Assembly (NCBI GenBank): GCA_005116945.1
Contig: SWDH01000045.1
Coordinates: forward strand, 73,073-137,072
Length of the DNA: 64,000 nucleotides
Direction of reading: 5' to 3'
From: Nitrospira sp.
GTDB lineage: Bacteria; Nitrospirota; Nitrospiria; Nitrospirales; Nitrospiraceae
Part shown: one piece after another, positions 40,394 through 64,000 of the stretch
Position numbering within the stretch: position 1 is the stretch's first letter
How the letters are laid out: every line of letters starts with the position of its first letter
Made by a program: the position numbers and the translations under genes
The notes under the pieces: generated by a model
Told to the model about the DNA's origin: nothing
The model's database searches: none
The model's input: only the letters and a program-made list of their open reading frames with translations

Positions 40394-42175
40394 ATGAAAA
40401 TCTGGGACAGTCTGCCGAAAAAACACTATCTGAGCCTTGCGCCATGGGCATGGGTTCAATTAGAGAGCGCGGACCCTCCCGGCCCTTTTCCCTTTATTGC
40501 AGGGGTGGCGCCTGAAGTTGTCGCCAGTCTCCATGAGGCCCACGGCCTCCTCGCCAGTGCCATCGATACGGCCATCAGCGATGTTTTTTCTAGACGGGCT
40601 CCGCTCGACGATCCTGATCGTCAACGGCGACTGGAGGATGCTTATGCGGAGGTGATCAGCGCCCGCCCCGATCTGCAGCAGCATATTCGTTGTGGCCGGA
40701 AGCCGGACGGGACGTTTCAATGGGAGTTTCCAACCGATTCCACCAAATCCGCTACGGTTACGAACGCCGGGCTCCGTATCTTCCACTCCGTGAAGCGACA
40801 GGCCATTCCAATCGGGTTCGACCAGCGGCAGCTGGGGCCGGCGGTAGGAAAAATTTTGGGGTTCCTGGACGGCACCCACCAGACTGAGGAGGTCAAGACG
40901 GTGGTAGCGACCTCAGGGCGGGATAGTGAACGTCTACTGACGCGATTGATCGAATCGCTTCACCAGCATGAGTGCTTGGTCAGCTCGAGCACCTCCTCCG
41001 TCAGATCCCATTGGTTGGAAACGCTGCACGATCAAGACATGATCCATCTCGGCCATGCCGCGCTGCTCTATCGGCAACGGGACCACCTGCTGTGGTTCGA
41101 TCCCTGGCTGCTCCCCTGGTTTGCGGAGTCTTCCGTTCCGTCGCTCTGGGGGTCGCTGCTGCCCAAACCGGCTGCCGTCTTCTTGACCCACGATCATGAC
41201 GATCATGTGGATCCTCGCACGCTCTTGCACCTGCCCAAGGACACGCCGATCATCGTGCCGAGCCGAAGGAATCGGCGCACGCTCTCCTACGATTATCTGT
41301 CGCTCTTGCGGGAACTGGGGTTCGGACATGTGATCGAATTGGCGCATGGAGATAGTTGGGCGTTCGATGGAGGGGCCGTGTATGCAGTGCCGTTCTATGG
41401 CGAGGATCCCTGCGACCTGGAGATGCCGCGTAACTGCTATCTTATCGTCGATCGTGGCTATAACGTGCTTGTGCATGCGGATAGCGGGCCGACGAATAGC
41501 GGCAGGTCCGCCCTCAAGGATGGCGTGATCCAAGTCTATGCCTCGTCGAGTTCTGTGTACGGCGGCAATACGCAGATGCCGTTTTCAATTCATGACAACG
41601 TCGATCACCCGGTCTCTCTCTATGCGGCCAGCAAAAAGGCCAATGAACTCATGGCCCATTGTTATGCGCATCTGTATCGGGTTCCCTGCACGGGGCTGAG
41701 GTTTTTCACGGTGTATGGGCCCTGGGGAAGACCCGATATGGCTCTCTTCATATTTACGAAGGCGATCTTGGAGGGAAAACCGATTGAGGTCTACAACCAC
41801 GGAAAGATGCGCCGCGACTTTACCTATATCGATGACATCGTTGAAGGAGTCATTCGGACACTCGATCACCCAGCCACGCCGAACCAGGCTTGGTCCGGCG
41901 ACAAGCCGGATCCCGGAACGAGTTCAGCGCCGGCGAGAATTTACAATATCGGGAATCATCAGCCTGTGGAGCTACTACACTTCATCGAGGTGCTGGAGCA
42001 GGCGTTAGGAAAGAAAGCAGTGAAGAACCTGCTGCCGATTCAGCCTGGCGATGTGCCGGCGACGTTTGCGGACGTCGAAGATCTGACGCGGGACGTCGGG
42101 TTTGCTCCAGCGACGCCGATTGAAGAAGGGATCTCGCGGTTTGTGCGGTGGTATCGGGAGTTCTACAAAAAGTAA
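40394..42175 (+). CDS. Metallo-hydrolase / UDP-glucuronate-epimerase chimera
   Basis: 593 residues in one frame, but a fusion. Residues 1-380 are a metallo-beta-lactamase-fold protein with an uncharacterised N-terminal domain; its site is H266-D-H268-D-D-H271 ([10 protein letters not shown]). At about residue 380 (near 41531) it switches abruptly to the middle of an extended SDR epimerase: [61 protein letters not shown], which is UDP-glucuronate 4-epimerase-like. The first about 125 epimerase residues, with the NAD-binding GxxGxxG, are missing and so is the end of the hydrolase. A deletion joining two neighbouring genes in frame is the simplest reading. The epimerase half cannot bind NAD; the hydrolase half may fold. 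Confidence 0.85.
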
Positions 42176-57489: not shown

Positions 57490-58305
57490 TTAACGCATTG
57501 CTCCGGCAAGCCTGCTTAAAGCTGATCTTATATACTTGATATGGTCCTCATACTCAGACGTTTTGGGTATCAACTTGAGGGCCTTCTTGTATTCCTTCCG
57601 TGACGATACAAAATCCCCTATTGCCTCCAGAGAGACCGCAAGGCCGTAACGAGGCCCTGCTTCGTTGGGGTCCAGGCGCAAGGCGGCGCGGTATTCAGCG
57701 ATCGCTCCCTCAAGGTCGCCCTTCTTCTTTAGCTCGATTCCGAGGTTGCAATGTGCACCCACATGATTGGGGTTGAGGTCTAAGACGGCGCGGTATTCGG
57801 CAATCGCCCCCTCAAAATCACCCTTCTTTTCTAACGCGCTTCCGAGGCTGTAATGGGCATCCACTTCGTTGGGGTTGAGACGCAGGGTGGCGCGGTATTC
57901 GGTGATCGCCCCATTAATGTCACCTTTCTTCGATAACGCGGTTCCGAGGTTGTAATGGGCGTCTACTTCGTTGGGGTTGAGGCGTAAGGCGGCACGGTAT
58001 TCGGTGATCGCTCTTTCAAGATCGCCCTTTTTCTGCAACGCGGTTCCGAGACAGAAATGGATCTCCACGGAGTCTGGATTGAGACGTAAGGCAGCGCGGT
58101 ACTCGGCGATCGCTTCCTTAAGGTCACCCTTCTTCAACAGAGCGAATCCGAGGTTGGAATGAGCGCACGCGTCGTTGGGATTGAGACTCAGGTCAAGGCG
58201 GTATTCGGCGATCGCCCCTTCAAGATCGCCCTTCTTCAGCAGCGCTGTTGCGAGGTGGTAATGATCGCCCAGGTGGCTCATAAGATCGCTCCCAGACCAG
58301 GACAT
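57490..58305 (-). CDS. TPR-repeat protein
   Basis: A 271-residue protein of seven or eight tandem tetratricopeptide repeats, each near KKGDLEGAIAEYRAALRLNP followed by NDACAHSNLG-type turns. No signal peptide or other domain is seen, so it is probably cytoplasmic and binds peptides or partners. The repeats are very alike, pointing to recent internal duplication. Start ATG 58305; ATG 58281 (GGGAGCG upstream, residue 9) is an equally good alternative. It stands alone between a hairpin and an empty gap. Confidence 0.88.
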   Translation of the reverse strand: MSWSGSDLMSHLGDHYHLATALLKKGDLEGAIAEYRLDLSLNPNDACAHSNLGFALLKKGDLKEAIAEYRAALRLNPDSVEIHFCLGTALQKKGDLERAITEYRAALRLNPNEVDAHYNLGTALSKKGDINGAITEYRATLRLNPNEVDAHYSLGSALEKKGDFEGAIAEYRAVLDLNPNHVGAHCNLGIELKKKGDLEGAIAEYRAALRLDPNEAGPRYGLAVSLEAIGDFVSSRKEYKKALKLIPKTSEYEDHIKYIRSALSRLAGAMR

Positions 58306-60006: not shown

Positions 60007-61869
60007 TCAGTCAACCTCCGGTAGCTCTCCGTAGACCGACTCCACAACGCGTTTCATTTCTTCGTCTGAGGCCGGGAGATTGTGGATTTCTTCGCCGGCC
60101 TCCTGCATGGTTTTCAAGTCGAGCATGGTTCCCGGCACGAGGTCTTCCCCTTTTCCTAACTTTCCTCTCACGGCATACACGACCCAGCGGGGACCTTCGA
60201 GGGAGAGGACGAGATAGGCGAAATCCGAGGCTGCCAGGATAGTGTGTGCACCGAGATGGGTCAGGGTTCCGTAGCTGAGAACCATTCCTCCTGCGAATTG
60301 GAAACCGGCCGGCACAACAACCGATTTCCCCATCTGGTAGTACCCTTGCCAGGCTGCTGCGCCGACGGTTGCAGCGGTTCCCCCGACCAAGGTCGTCCCG
60401 GCGATGACGTTGCCCATCACATACGTCGAGGCTATTCCGGTTTCACCCGCTACACGCAGGGTGCCGGCTGCCGCGGCCTCCGCCGTTCCTGCGACAACGC
60501 CGAATGTCCCCCCGCCGATTGCCACACCAGCTGCAGCAAGGGGAACGCCAATGTACTGGAGACCTTTCCCCGCTGCGTAGCCTGTTCCTTTAATCGTCAC
60601 GCCTGCCACGTGACTGAGGGCGCGTTCGCTGAGACCCGCGAGTGAGCCTGTGCTTGCCACGGTTCCTGCCACAAGGTTCGATCCGGTAAAGTCGAGGGCG
60701 CCATACAGGGCGGCGACCGCAGCGATGGCGGAGGGCGCAACGAGATCATAGCCGGACTTCGAGGTATTCCACACGACTTCGATTGCGATCTGTGTCATTG
60801 CCTTTCCCTCGCGCATGACCACCATGGTGGGGAATGCGAAGGTGTTGACGCCGATGTAGCCGAGAGACGCGGCTGAGATCTTTCCGATCGGTTCAATTGT
60901 CGCATCCCAGAGCAGTCCTTGAAGCACCCAGTGGAGTGAACGCAATGTGGCGAGGCTGATGCCGGAGGTCTGATAGTCCGAGATCTCCCGCTTCGCCTCT
61001 TTGAAGGAGTGGGCAACGTCTTCGCGATAGTTCGAGACTGCCTGACCGATTAGATCGGTCATCTTTTTGGACCAGCGGCTGCGACGGTCAGCTTCCTCTT
61101 CGAAAACGCGTGGCATGTTCAGTTCACGGATGTCGTCGCCCACGGCTATCGCACGAGCTTTGGCGTTGGAGGGGACAGCGGCATAGCCTTTGATAAAACG
61201 CCGCCAGGCAAAAGACATTGTGTCCGACGCGCGTGCAGTTCCATCTTTGGCGAGCGTCTGAGCCTGGTCGAGCGATTGTTGGACGCGGCGCTTGCCCCCT
61301 TCGTCCATTCGTTCTGAAACGTCGTCACCATGTTGCCCAGACTTTTCCACCATCTCGACTCCCAGTCGGTCGATGTCGGCGGCGGTTTCCTTAGAGAACT
61401 CCCAGGACTTGCCGACGATGCCCGTCGCATCTTGCCAGGAGCGATAGGCCAGCAGTGTGCTGTTCTCGCGCGTTGCCTTGGCGATCTCACCCGTTAACGT
61501 GTCGGTGGCTTGGTGAATGCCCCGTGCGATGCGAAAACTGAGGGTGGTGCCCTCCGCCAGGATGGTGACGGATTCTTTGGCCTTGGCGAGGGCGAGCAGA
61601 AAGGCTTGCCGCGTTCGAAGCCCCATGAGTGAGCCGGCGAGTTCCCAGGCGTCTGGGCCAGGGGGAATCAATCGGATCGACGTTTGCGGGACCTGAAAAG
61701 CGCCGTTGTTGTAGAGAGACAAGTGTCCCTCCACAACCAATTTTTTGGTGTGCTTCAGGGGGTCGTCAGCCGGATTGGGAGTCGCACAACCTCCCAGTGT
61801 GGCTGCAGCGAGAAGGATGAATACGAGCACGCGTGCCCGGGTCACGTTATGGTGCGGTGCAGGGGCCAT
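60007..61869 (-). CDS. Large glycine-rich lipoprotein, member 2 of tandem pair
   Basis: A 620-residue lipoprotein of unknown function. Lipobox LGGC (residue about 28), a helical region (about 60-330) with SWEFSKETAADIDRLG and WRRFIKGYAAVPSNAKA, then a long Ala/Gly/Val-rich stretch (about 365-540) of GxxxG-type segments such as GVAIGGGTFGVVAGTAEAAAAG, and a C-terminal domain with LSLEGPRWVVYAVRGKLGKGEDLVPGTMLDLKTM. The same layout and end segment occur in the gene immediately upstream. ATG 61869; it overlaps the upstream gene by 23 bases. The glycine-rich part could insert in a membrane. Confidence 0.7.
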   Translation of the reverse strand: MAPAPHHNVTRARVLVFILLAAATLGGCATPNPADDPLKHTKKLVVEGHLSLYNNGAFQVPQTSIRLIPPGPDAWELAGSLMGLRTRQAFLLALAKAKESVTILAEGTTLSFRIARGIHQATDTLTGEIAKATRENSTLLAYRSWQDATGIVGKSWEFSKETAADIDRLGVEMVEKSGQHGDDVSERMDEGGKRRVQQSLDQAQTLAKDGTARASDTMSFAWRRFIKGYAAVPSNAKARAIAVGDDIRELNMPRVFEEEADRRSRWSKKMTDLIGQAVSNYREDVAHSFKEAKREISDYQTSGISLATLRSLHWVLQGLLWDATIEPIGKISAASLGYIGVNTFAFPTMVVMREGKAMTQIAIEVVWNTSKSGYDLVAPSAIAAVAALYGALDFTGSNLVAGTVASTGSLAGLSERALSHVAGVTIKGTGYAAGKGLQYIGVPLAAAGVAIGGGTFGVVAGTAEAAAAGTLRVAGETGIASTYVMGNVIAGTTLVGGTAATVGAAAWQGYYQMGKSVVVPAGFQFAGGMVLSYGTLTHLGAHTILAASDFAYLVLSLEGPRWVVYAVRGKLGKGEDLVPGTMLDLKTMQEAGEEIHNLPASDEEMKRVVESVYGELPEVD

Positions 61870-63355
61870 CGGTGTCCCTTACGTCACAGGGGAGTTGCTG
61901 GAGCACATCACGTATCGTCTTTGGGTCTTCAGACAGGGCCTCGACCTTCATGCCTTCGGTCGATTGAAGCTCTTTGAGATTAATGACGGTTCCAACAGGG
62001 AGATCGCCTGCCGACGATTCTGCTCGCCCTTGCTTGGATTGTACCCGTCCGGTCACACTGACAAGGAGGAGCTTGGGCCCTTCCCACGCGAGCAAGATCG
62101 CCGCATCCTCTACACCCATAAAGAGATGAGCGGGCAAGGCGGAAAGAGCGTTATATCCGAGCACCACTCCGGCGCTGGCTTGATTGATCACGACTTTCGT
62201 CGCCCCGGACAAGGCATCGTAAGTCATGAACCCCACGTACTTGCCGGTGTCGAGTGTGGTGAGCGAGGCGGCTTTTCCGACACCAACAGCTGGTCCTGCT
62301 GCCGTAAATGCCACTTGATTGACAGCTCCGAACAGCGTTCCACCCACAGTGGTTACAGGCACTGCTCCGAGTGAGAGGATGGCCAGACTTGTCAGTAGGC
62401 CACTTTCGACTGTCGGTGAAACCAGCTTGATGCCGGTGGTTCCCGTATAGAACAGAGTCATGCCAGCGGCATGGATCGTTCGTCCTGCGACGATGGAGGT
62501 TGCAGCAACCGGAAGAAACACGGTGCCTGTCGCGGCGCCGGCCCCTTTGGCCCCCCCGCGCACGATGGTCTTGGCAGCAGGAGCAAGGCCGCCATGGTAG
62601 AGCGCTTTGAGGTAGCCCTGGAGGATGGGTCCGAGTGCCATCAAGGTATTGGGTTCTTCGCCAGACCGTTCGTACTCCGCGCGAAAATCACGGCTGGCTT
62701 GCTGGAATGCGGCGTCCCACGACACCTGTATCCGCCCTGAGAAGTTTTCGTGCAGGGTTTCGGTGATATCCCAGATGTTGCTGAAGTCCTGTTTTAGCGA
62801 ATCGAATTCATGGCCTGGAAGCGCCAACAGAGCCTTACGATCCTGTTGCGTCCGTTCGCCGAGCGACAGATTGCCATGGATAAACTTTTCCCAGGCATCG
62901 CCGAAGTGCTGAGTGGCATAGGCCCATTCGGCTTTCGTGAGTGAACGGGTGCCTTCGAGAATGCCTCCGGTGCGTTCTGTGCCGGATTGCACCAACGACT
63001 TTCCCGTTTCAAACGATCGTTGGAGATCCGTGCCGAGCGTGGATGTGTATTCAGACGAGTGTGCCACCATTCGGCGTGAAGCTTCTTTGATGGCCGCACT
63101 GGATGAGTGGATGGATTTTTCTTGTGCGTACGCCAGGGCGTTCTTGCTGGAGGTGATGACGTACCAGCCTTCGTCGTACAGCATTTTGTGGCCGCGGAGA
63201 TTGGCCGAGGTCAGCGGAATAACGTCCTCAAGTGTCTGGGCCTGAGAAGATTCAACGGAGGATGTACGTGGCGTGGGATCGGATGCACATCCTGACCATG
63301 CTAGACCACACATGAGAGGTAGGATTATTGCCGTCGATGTTCTGAATTCGAACAA
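61847..63355 (-). CDS. Large glycine-rich lipoprotein, member 1 of tandem pair
   Basis: A 502-residue paralogue of the downstream gene. Lipobox WSGC (residue about 23), helical part (about 55-235) with GDAWEKFIHGNLSLGERTQQDRKAL, then Ala/Gly/Val-rich segments (GAGAATGTVFLPVAATSIVAG, LSLGAVPVTTVGGTLFGAVNQ), and an end LAWEGPKLLLVSVTGRVQSK, LPVGTVINLKELQS. The start is TTG 63355 because AGGAG lies eight bases upstream and no ATG serves before the signal peptide. The overlap with the next gene implies co-translation. The divergent LexA-like regulator begins 204 bp away. Confidence 0.7.
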   Translation of the reverse strand: MFEFRTSTAIILPLMCGLAWSGCASDPTPRTSSVESSQAQTLEDVIPLTSANLRGHKMLYDEGWYVITSSKNALAYAQEKSIHSSSAAIKEASRRMVAHSSEYTSTLGTDLQRSFETGKSLVQSGTERTGGILEGTRSLTKAEWAYATQHFGDAWEKFIHGNLSLGERTQQDRKALLALPGHEFDSLKQDFSNIWDITETLHENFSGRIQVSWDAAFQQASRDFRAEYERSGEEPNTLMALGPILQGYLKALYHGGLAPAAKTIVRGGAKGAGAATGTVFLPVAATSIVAGRTIHAAGMTLFYTGTTGIKLVSPTVESGLLTSLAILSLGAVPVTTVGGTLFGAVNQVAFTAAGPAVGVGKAASLTTLDTGKYVGFMTYDALSGATKVVINQASAGVVLGYNALSALPAHLFMGVEDAAILLAWEGPKLLLVSVTGRVQSKQGRAESSAGDLPVGTVINLKELQSTEGMKVEALSEDPKTIRDVLQQLPCDVRDTDGPCTAP

Positions 63356-63521: not shown

Positions 63522-63560
63522 TTGACAGCCCTTGCCACAATATGTAACATTTTGTGACAT
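63522..63560 (+). promoter_or_regulatory. Promoter and operator of the LexA-like gene
   Basis: TTGACA (63522-63527), a 17-bp spacer, and TAACAT (63545-63550) form a sigma-70-type promoter whose start point would fall at about 63557-63559, on or beside the ATG at 63559. Over the -10 lies a near-perfect palindrome: ATGTAACA (63542-63549), TTT, TGTGACAT (63553-63560). Occupancy by a dimeric regulator would block transcription, so self-repression is likely. Confidence 0.65.
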
Positions 63561-64000
63561 GACGGAAAAACAGTTCAGACAGGCGCGGGTTCGGTTGGGG
63601 TACACGCAGGCGAAGTTGGCGGAGGTGCTCCAGCTGAGCCGGATGACGATCAGCCGTTATGAGGCCGGCACGTGGGAGGTACCCTTGTCAGTCGAGATGG
63701 CATTAGATCAGCTGGGGTCAACGCAGATTCCGATGTTGGGCATGGTGGCGGCCGGGACGCCGATCGAGCCGATCTCACAAGCTGAACTGGTCGCGGTGTT
63801 GCCTCCGTTGTTGCGCGGGGGCGAGACCTTCGCGCTACGAGTCAAGGGCGAGTCGATGAAGGAGGACGGCATTCTTCCTGGCGACTTGGTGGTGGTGCGG
63901 AAGCAGGGGACTGCGAGGAACGGACAGACGGTGGTGGCGTTGGTCAACAACGAAGCGACGATCAAGAGGTATTACCGCAAGGAGGGCCGGATCGAACTGC
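63559..64000 (+). CDS. LexA-like XRE/S24 repressor (partial, runs off the end)
   Basis: The first 147 codons of an XRE-HTH plus S24-peptidase protein. HTH: RQARVRLGYTQAKLAEVLQLSRMTISRYEAGTWEVP (residues about 5-40). The S24 domain has the cleavage-site type MVAAGTPIEP (Ala-Gly bond), the catalytic Ser in VKGESMKEDGILPGD and the catalytic Lys in NNEATIKRYY, so RecA-stimulated self-cleavage is expected. Unlike classical LexA the DNA-binding part is XRE-type. ATG 63559 has no ribosome binding site and the promoter geometry predicts a leaderless message. The C-terminal end lies outside the window. Confidence 0.88.
   Translation, partial: MTEKQFRQARVRLGYTQAKLAEVLQLSRMTISRYEAGTWEVPLSVEMALDQLGSTQIPMLGMVAAGTPIEPISQAELVAVLPPLLRGGETFALRVKGESMKEDGILPGDLVVVRKQGTARNGQTVVALVNNEATIKRYYRKEGRIEL

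What the first reader, a model, noticed from the sequence alone, without database searches (positions are those of the whole stretch)
60007..63355. Candidate new envelope system: overlapping paralogous glycine-rich lipoproteins
Two large lipoproteins with the same layout (lipobox, helical region, long Ala/Gly/Val-rich GxxxG part, shared end domain) overlap by 23 bp, so they are made together. The glycine-rich parts look able to insert in membranes, and an XRE/S24 stress-type regulator sits divergently 204 bp away. I know no described system of this form; a pore, toxin-like or envelope-sealing role are all open.
Basis: partly seen in the sequence, partly recalled or inferred. Interest (0 to 1): 0.7.

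Follow-up and report, generated by a model that had tools for sequence, protein, structure and literature searches.

The report
Paired lipoproteins with matched-length helical arms
Two neighbouring genes make a pair of undescribed cell-envelope proteins, each apparently folded as one very long helical hairpin; in relatives one half is lengthened in 11-residue steps together with the other half, which suggests that the two halves lie side by side.

Summary
The two genes are real, paralogous and conserved. B (502 aa) precedes A (620 aa) with a 23-nt overlap. Pairs, in the same order, occur in Nitrospirota, two "deltaproteobacterial" MAGs and Leptospira plasmids, under purifying selection. Pfam, NCBIfam, PHROGs, PADLOC and the PDB contain no relative. 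A's lipid-anchor Cys is invariant; B's is not.

The XRE/S24 regulator is a false lead. It belongs to a separate S24/RecA-like/family-B-polymerase cassette, found in relatives without the pair and absent beside the pair elsewhere.

What I add: the charged half and the Gly/Ala/Val half are both 11-residue (hendecad) alpha-helical, with a 98-degree hydrophobic periodicity. In one Nitrospirota class A has expanded by +33/+33, +55/+55 and +66/+66 residues in the two halves. Measured from a conserved apex Gly, A's arms are 256/251 residues in the window, 248/247 in Leptospira and 322/317 in the longest forms; B's are 185/192. The best reading is a lipid-anchored antiparallel hairpin rod, base at the membrane, with A and B as co-translated subunits of an envelope tether or conduit. 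The hairpin is well supported by sequence but not by AlphaFold (mean pLDDT 30-33). The function is inferred. No immunity, secretion or partner gene is linked.

The parts
61847..63355 (-). gene B, first gene of the pair, 502 aa, TTG start, exported (lipobox-like WSGC, Cys23)
   Evidence: dN/dS 0.12-0.17 by NG86 against window relatives
60007..61869 (-). gene A, second gene of the pair, 620 aa lipoprotein (lipobox LGGC, Cys28)
   Evidence: dN/dS 0.11-0.12 by NG86 against window relatives
61847..61869 (-). 23-nt overlap of B stop and A start; A's AAGGG ribosome-binding site lies inside B
   Evidence: overlaps of 1-23 nt in 16 of 18 measured loci; the exceptions are G112 (gap) and G169, whose A start is ambiguous
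61786..61797 (-). A lipobox L-G-G-C; the Cys is invariant from Nitrospira to Leptospira
60961..61731 (-). A arm 1 (residues 47-303): charged hendecad helical arm up to apex Gly303
   Evidence: 98-degree periodicity, Z 7.5; arm length 256
60211..60960 (-). A arm 2 (residues 304-553): Gly/Ala/Val-rich hendecad arm returning to the base
   Evidence: peak at 96-98 degrees, Z about 3; arm length 251
60010..60210 (-). A C-terminal end domain (residues 554-620, VLSLEGPRW...)
   Evidence: only part with moderate AF2 confidence, about pLDDT 60, beta-beta-beta-alpha-beta-alpha; shared with B
61300..61368 (-). site V1 in arm 1 (about residues 168-190) where 11/33-aa repeats are added in other lineages; none added here
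60562..60675 (-). site V2 in arm 2 (about residues 399-436) where matching numbers of 11/33-aa repeats are added in other lineages
62660..63217 (-). B arm 1 (residues 47-232), ends at invariant Y-x-x-S-G apex
   Evidence: arm length 185; apex aligned with A's
62087..62659 (-). B arm 2 (residues 233-423), Gly/Ala/Val-rich
   Evidence: arm length 192; 98-degree peak in pooled B homologues
61850..62086 (-). B C-terminal end domain (residues 424-502, WEGPK...); Cys490 and Cys499 in Nitrospira and delta homologues only
63532..64000 (+). XRE/Peptidase_S24 regulator: NOT part of the pair, first gene of an S24/RecA-like/family-B-polymerase cassette that runs past the window

Best explanation
A and B are co-translated, paralogous exported proteins. 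Each folds as one long antiparallel helical hairpin: an N-terminal base (in A lipid-anchored), an outgoing charged hendecad arm, an apex loop at the conserved Y-x-[T/S]-x-G, a returning Gly/Ala/Val-rich hendecad arm whose small residues let it pack tightly on the first, and a C-terminal alpha/beta end domain back at the base. They most likely assemble into a membrane-attached rod or tube in the periplasm, acting as a spacer, tether or conduit whose reach is set by the number of 11-residue units in A. Shown here: paralogy, recurrence, coupling, selection, 11-residue helical periodicity, matched arm lengths. Inferred: antiparallel pairing, periplasmic location, A-B assembly, function.
For: Pair recurs, B then A, in Nitrospiraceae, f18, f24, two 'deltaproteobacterial' MAGs and two Leptospira plasmids, with overlaps of 1-23 nt in 16 of 18 measured loci and dN/dS 0.11-0.22 by NG86. 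Arm 1 and arm 2 expand by the same amount in 11-aa units: +33/+33 (G107), +55/+55 (G137), +66/+66 (G140, G092), against an unexpanded state elsewhere; arm 1 of G107 and G137 is 2 residues short of the exact multiple. On the tree this is at least two separate lineages plus a further +22/+22 step between two genomes of one genus. Repeat units have the same size in both arms of a lineage, 11 in g58 and 33 in G140/G092. Hydrophobic periodicity peaks near 98 degrees (3 turns per 11 residues) in both arms of A and of B, and in single sequences: window arm 1 Z 7.5, window arm 2 peak at 96 degrees with Z about 3, L. biflexa arm 2 Z 3.6-4.4. Arms measured from the apex Gly: A 256/251, 248/247 in Leptospira, 322/317 longest; B 185/188-193. 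Spacers keep exact lengths between homologues only 26-30% identical: 58 and 116 in A, 33 and 78 in B.
Against: AlphaFold2 with 6 and 4 sequences gave mean pLDDT 30 and 33 and no hairpin, and drew short strands in the Gly-rich part. Invariant prolines interrupt arm 2, so it cannot be one straight helix. Fully extended arms (about 38 nm in A) would exceed an ordinary periplasm. Only about three independent matched changes are available, and the absolute arm equality depends on anchors I chose. No data bear on assembly, location or function.
Confidence: 0.5

Rival explanations
1. Apolipoprotein-like lipid binders: the hendecad arms are proline-punctuated amphipathic helices that lie on or carry lipid, for instance moving or holding lipid between the two membranes.
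For: 11/3 amphipathic helices with small-residue hydrophobic faces; conserved prolines in arm 2; lipid anchor on A. A statistically insignificant fold hit to apoA-IV (E 0.42) is only suggestive.
Against: Lipid belts need no 1:1 matched arm lengths. No sequence relative among apolipoproteins.
Confidence: 0.2
2. A two-component pore or contact toxin in the manner of bipartite alpha-helical pore formers or Cdz glycine-zipper bacteriocins.
For: Two paralogous, co-translated proteins with a Gly/Ala-rich hydrophobic half.
Against: No immunity gene, secretion system or other constant neighbour. Cdz toxins are 84-86 aa and secreted by type I systems (PMC5380434). The pair is found in 12 of 14 sampled genomes of family f18, more like a housekeeping part. 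Modest hydropathy.
Confidence: 0.1
3. A stress or DNA-damage-induced envelope system controlled by the divergent XRE/S24 regulator.
For: Divergent position in this one genome.
Against: S24 orthologues in six pair-less genomes are followed by the same RecA-like gene (and polymerase where in reach), with no A or B within 1.5 kb; G020, which holds the pair, has only a ~62% paralogue on another contig. The loci of G020 and G002 have a different divergent gene, and Leptospira has glucan-synthesis genes or, in L. kobayashii, a chemotaxis gene there.
Confidence: 0.03
4. The Gly-rich half is beta-structured (barrel or solenoid) and only the charged half is helical.
For: AF2 draws short strands there, at pLDDT about 20-30.
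Against: 98-degree periodicity in the Gly-rich half of A and B, 11-residue repeat units and length coupling to a helical arm.
Confidence: 0.1

Closest known systems
Periplasmic adaptor (membrane fusion) proteins with long antiparallel alpha-hairpins, e.g. EmrA (PMC4158417)
   Same: Long two-arm helical hairpin whose length differs between homologues; EmrA's is 127 A with 11 heptads per helix; envelope location
   Different: Heptads not hendecads; no Gly/Ala/Val-rich arm; no sequence relationship found; no efflux pump linked to the pair
Cdz glycine-zipper contact toxins of Caulobacter (PMC5380434)
   Same: Two co-encoded proteins with GxxxG-rich hydrophobic parts
   Different: Cdz proteins are 84-86 aa and encoded with a type I secretion system and an immunity gene; none of these here
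Bipartite alpha-pore-forming toxins (recalled from general knowledge)
   Same: Adjacent paralogous genes, long helices plus hydrophobic helices
   Different: Those have a short hydrophobic head and no lipid anchor; here the hydrophobic part is half the protein and is length-coupled to the other half
Apolipoprotein / alpha-synuclein type 11-residue helices (general knowledge)
   Same: 11/3 amphipathic helix periodicity, small residues
   Different: Matched arms, exported bacterial lipoprotein, no sequence match

Membership tests
Any described protein family (Pfam, NCBIfam, PHROGs, PADLOC) | Profile match above cut-off | tested here: not met
   No credible match for A or B or for the 12 and 11 aligned homologues
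Proteins of solved structure | Significant profile match to a PDB chain | tested here: not met
   Best E-values 0.13-0.31, chance level
Periplasmic adaptor (HlyD/EmrA) hairpin proteins | HlyD-type lipoyl and barrel domains around the hairpin | tested here: not met
   No such Pfam match
Periplasmic adaptor (HlyD/EmrA) hairpin proteins | Two helical arms of equal, co-varying length | tested here: met
   (a works-like feature, not membership)
Periplasmic adaptor (HlyD/EmrA) hairpin proteins | Linked transporter | tested here: inconclusive
   MacB/LolCD-like ABC genes directly upstream in G082 only, and about 2 kb downstream of the pair in G140; not constant
Cdz glycine-zipper bacteriocins | Small secreted peptides with type I secretion and immunity genes | tested here: not met
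   502 and 620 aa, no linked secretion or immunity genes (PMC5380434)
Lipoproteins | Signal peptide with invariant lipobox Cys | tested here: met
   A: Cys28 invariant in 12 of 12
Lipoproteins | Same, for B | tested here: not met
   Cys absent in L006 and in the f18 and f24 homologues; present in the window and Leptospira
S24/LexA-type stress regulon | Conserved linkage with the regulator | tested here: not met
S24/LexA-type stress regulon | Induction by DNA damage | not testable with these tools
   needs expression data

The most novel reading that the evidence does not exclude
A previously undescribed envelope-bridging device: co-translated paralogous hairpins built of right-handed 11-residue helices, one arm charged and one Gly/Ala/Val-rich, whose reach is tuned by adding matched 11-residue units to both arms.
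Probability: 0.3. Interest if true: 0.8.

Novelty: new variant of a known kind. Interest (0 to 1): 0.5.

Why it matters
If right, it adds a family of long envelope hairpins, present in 12 of 14 sampled genomes of one deep Nitrospirota family, built on 11-residue rather than 7-residue repeats. Nature has also done the length-changing experiment: matched additions in both arms give a direct, testable rule for how the two halves pair. Nitrospira cells are noted for a large periplasmic space (PMC3600790), and Leptospira biflexa offers a possible saprophytic test organism.

Tried and rejected
Known-family searches in Pfam, NCBIfam, PHROGs, PADLOC and PDB sequences: nothing credible. IMG/VR viral contigs: no relative, so not viral as far as sampled. 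Regulator linkage: rejected. AlphaFold2 of A and B with the few sequences allowed: too low in confidence to use, except as a hint of a shared end domain; Foldseek on it gave only insignificant hits. Gene-neighbour approach to function: flanks differ in every lineage (FGE-like and polA in Nitrospiraceae; proA/proB in some f18 and L005; periplasmic-glucan genes, GGDEF and a kinase in Leptospira), so no partner emerges. Patchy presence as mobility: in five Nitrospiraceae genomes only the last 54-85 residues of A survive, in the four fetched with wide flanks at the same place near polA, so repeated loss at an old site is the simpler reading.

Full report
What is there. On the minus strand, B (61847-63355, 502 aa, TTG start with GGAGGA upstream) is followed by A (60007-61869, 620 aa) with a 23-nt overlap. 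A starts with an AAGGG ribosome-binding site inside B. An overlap of 1-23 nt is present in 16 of 18 measured loci; the exceptions are G112, where a gap separates the genes, and G169, where the A start is ambiguous. Translational coupling is therefore a conserved property. A and B are paralogues: BLASTP E 2e-10, profile-profile probability 99.8%, E 4e-28. Both are under purifying selection, dN/dS 0.11-0.22 by NG86 over eight comparisons. A's lipobox Cys is invariant in 12 aligned homologues. B's is not: several homologues have a plain signal peptide.

Where it occurs. Four of 61 genus-to-order relatives, 14 of 175 genomes of the window's family, 12 of 14 of the sampled Nitrospirota family f18, one f24 genome, two MAGs labelled deltaproteobacteria (no other among 395 genomes of their phylum), and plasmids of Leptospira biflexa and L. 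kobayashii. Wherever a locus is complete, B precedes A. Of the 14 family members, five keep only the last 54-85 residues of A; in the four fetched with wide flanks these lie at the same place near polA, which points to repeated loss of an old locus. No family library or PDB sequence gives a credible match.

The regulator. The divergent S24 gene is the first gene of a cassette with a RecA-like ATPase-sized protein, a small gene and a family-B DNA polymerase. Orthologues of 90-95% identity in six Nitrospira genomes without the pair are followed by the same RecA-like gene, and by the polymerase in the five where the fetched stretch reaches it. In G020, which holds the pair, the best S24 is a ~62% paralogue on another contig.

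The new observation. The proteins show a strict geometry. In A the spacers from the LWD junction to the APS motif (58 residues) and from QYIGVP to VLSLEG (116 residues) have the same length in every homologue measured, including Leptospira, whose A is only 27% identical; B shows the same with 33 and 78. Only two sites vary in length beyond a few residues. In the charged arm (V1) and the Gly-rich arm (V2) some f18 members add 11-residue units, and in equal amounts: +33/+33 in G107, +55/+55 in G137, +66/+66 in G140 and G092. Arm 1 of G107 and G137 is 2 residues short of the exact multiple because of a small local deletion, and Leptospira deviates by -8/-4. The unit size also matches between arms within a lineage, 11 aa in G107/G137 and 33 aa in G140/G092. 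The tree puts G140/G092 beside unexpanded G122 and well away from G107/G137, so at least two lineages expanded, with a further matched +22/+22 difference inside one genus. If the two arms were free to differ over one to six units, three matches would have a chance of about 0.005; that is a rough figure of mine on few events.

Both arms are helical by periodicity. Hydrophobic power peaks at 96-100 degrees, the 11/3 helix value of 98, in all four segments (A and B, charged and Gly-rich), and also in single sequences. In the window, A arm 1 has Z 7.5 at 98 degrees, with none of 200 shuffles reaching it; A arm 2 peaks at 96 degrees with Z about 3, and 1-3% of shuffles reach it at 98 degrees. The pooled Z values are inflated by relatedness; the peak position is the point. 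Taking the invariant Gly of A's Y-x-[TS]-x-G motif (aligned with B's Y-x-x-S-G) as an apex, the arms are 256/251 in the window, 248/247 in Leptospira and 322/317 in the longest forms; B's are 185/188-193. V1 and V2 lie about 130 and 125 residues from that apex. The natural reading is an antiparallel hairpin whose two arms pack along each other, with the lipid anchor, the conserved N-terminal block and the shared end domain together at the base.

Limits. AlphaFold2 could use only 6 and 4 sequences and gave pLDDT 30 and 33, with no hairpin. Conserved prolines break arm 2, so each arm is probably several helices in register. The apex and end anchors were chosen by me after seeing the alignment; the coupling of changes does not depend on them. 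Straight arms of A would span about 38 nm, more than an ordinary periplasm, though Nitrospira is described as having a large periplasmic space (PMC3600790). Nothing measured here shows where the proteins sit, whether A and B touch, or what they do.

Most likely function. A lipid-anchored, periplasm-facing rod or tube made of A and B hairpins that tethers or spans the envelope; in works-like terms the nearest case is the matched-arm hairpin of periplasmic adaptors such as EmrA (PMC4158417), without membership in that family. A toxin role is less likely because the pair has no immunity, secretion or other constant partner gene and is near-universal in one sampled family. A lipid-binding, apolipoprotein-like role remains open.

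Noticed in passing
window 63532-64000 and L016 174-3432: XRE/S24 regulator, RecA-like protein without a Pfam match, 96-aa protein and a family-B DNA polymerase form a conserved Nitrospira cassette that looks like an SOS-type mutagenesis operon.
   Followed up: partly
G020:C8 492667-493131 and 770257-771663 (L010, L008): In Nitrospira RSF3 gene A is broken near residue 155 and its two halves lie 277 kb apart on one contig: a rearrangement or a scaffolding error.
   Followed up: partly
L054, L055, L056, L058, L112: Only the C-terminal 54-85 residues of A remain, some with stops, in five Nitrospiraceae genomes; in the four with wide flanks this is near polA. A series of gene-loss remnants.
   Followed up: yes
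L036 4506-9870 (Leptospira biflexa p74); L037: The pair sits divergently beside periplasmic-glucan synthesis genes (mdoD/mdoG type, mdoH) in Leptospira biflexa; in L. kobayashii a chemotaxis gene lies between.
   Followed up: no
window 40394-42175: A 593-aa ORF seems to join a metallo-beta-lactamase-like N-terminal part to the C-terminal half of a sugar-nucleotide epimerase: a chimera, deletion or assembly join.
   Followed up: no
window 57490-58305: TPR protein made of several near-identical 34-residue repeats.
   Followed up: no
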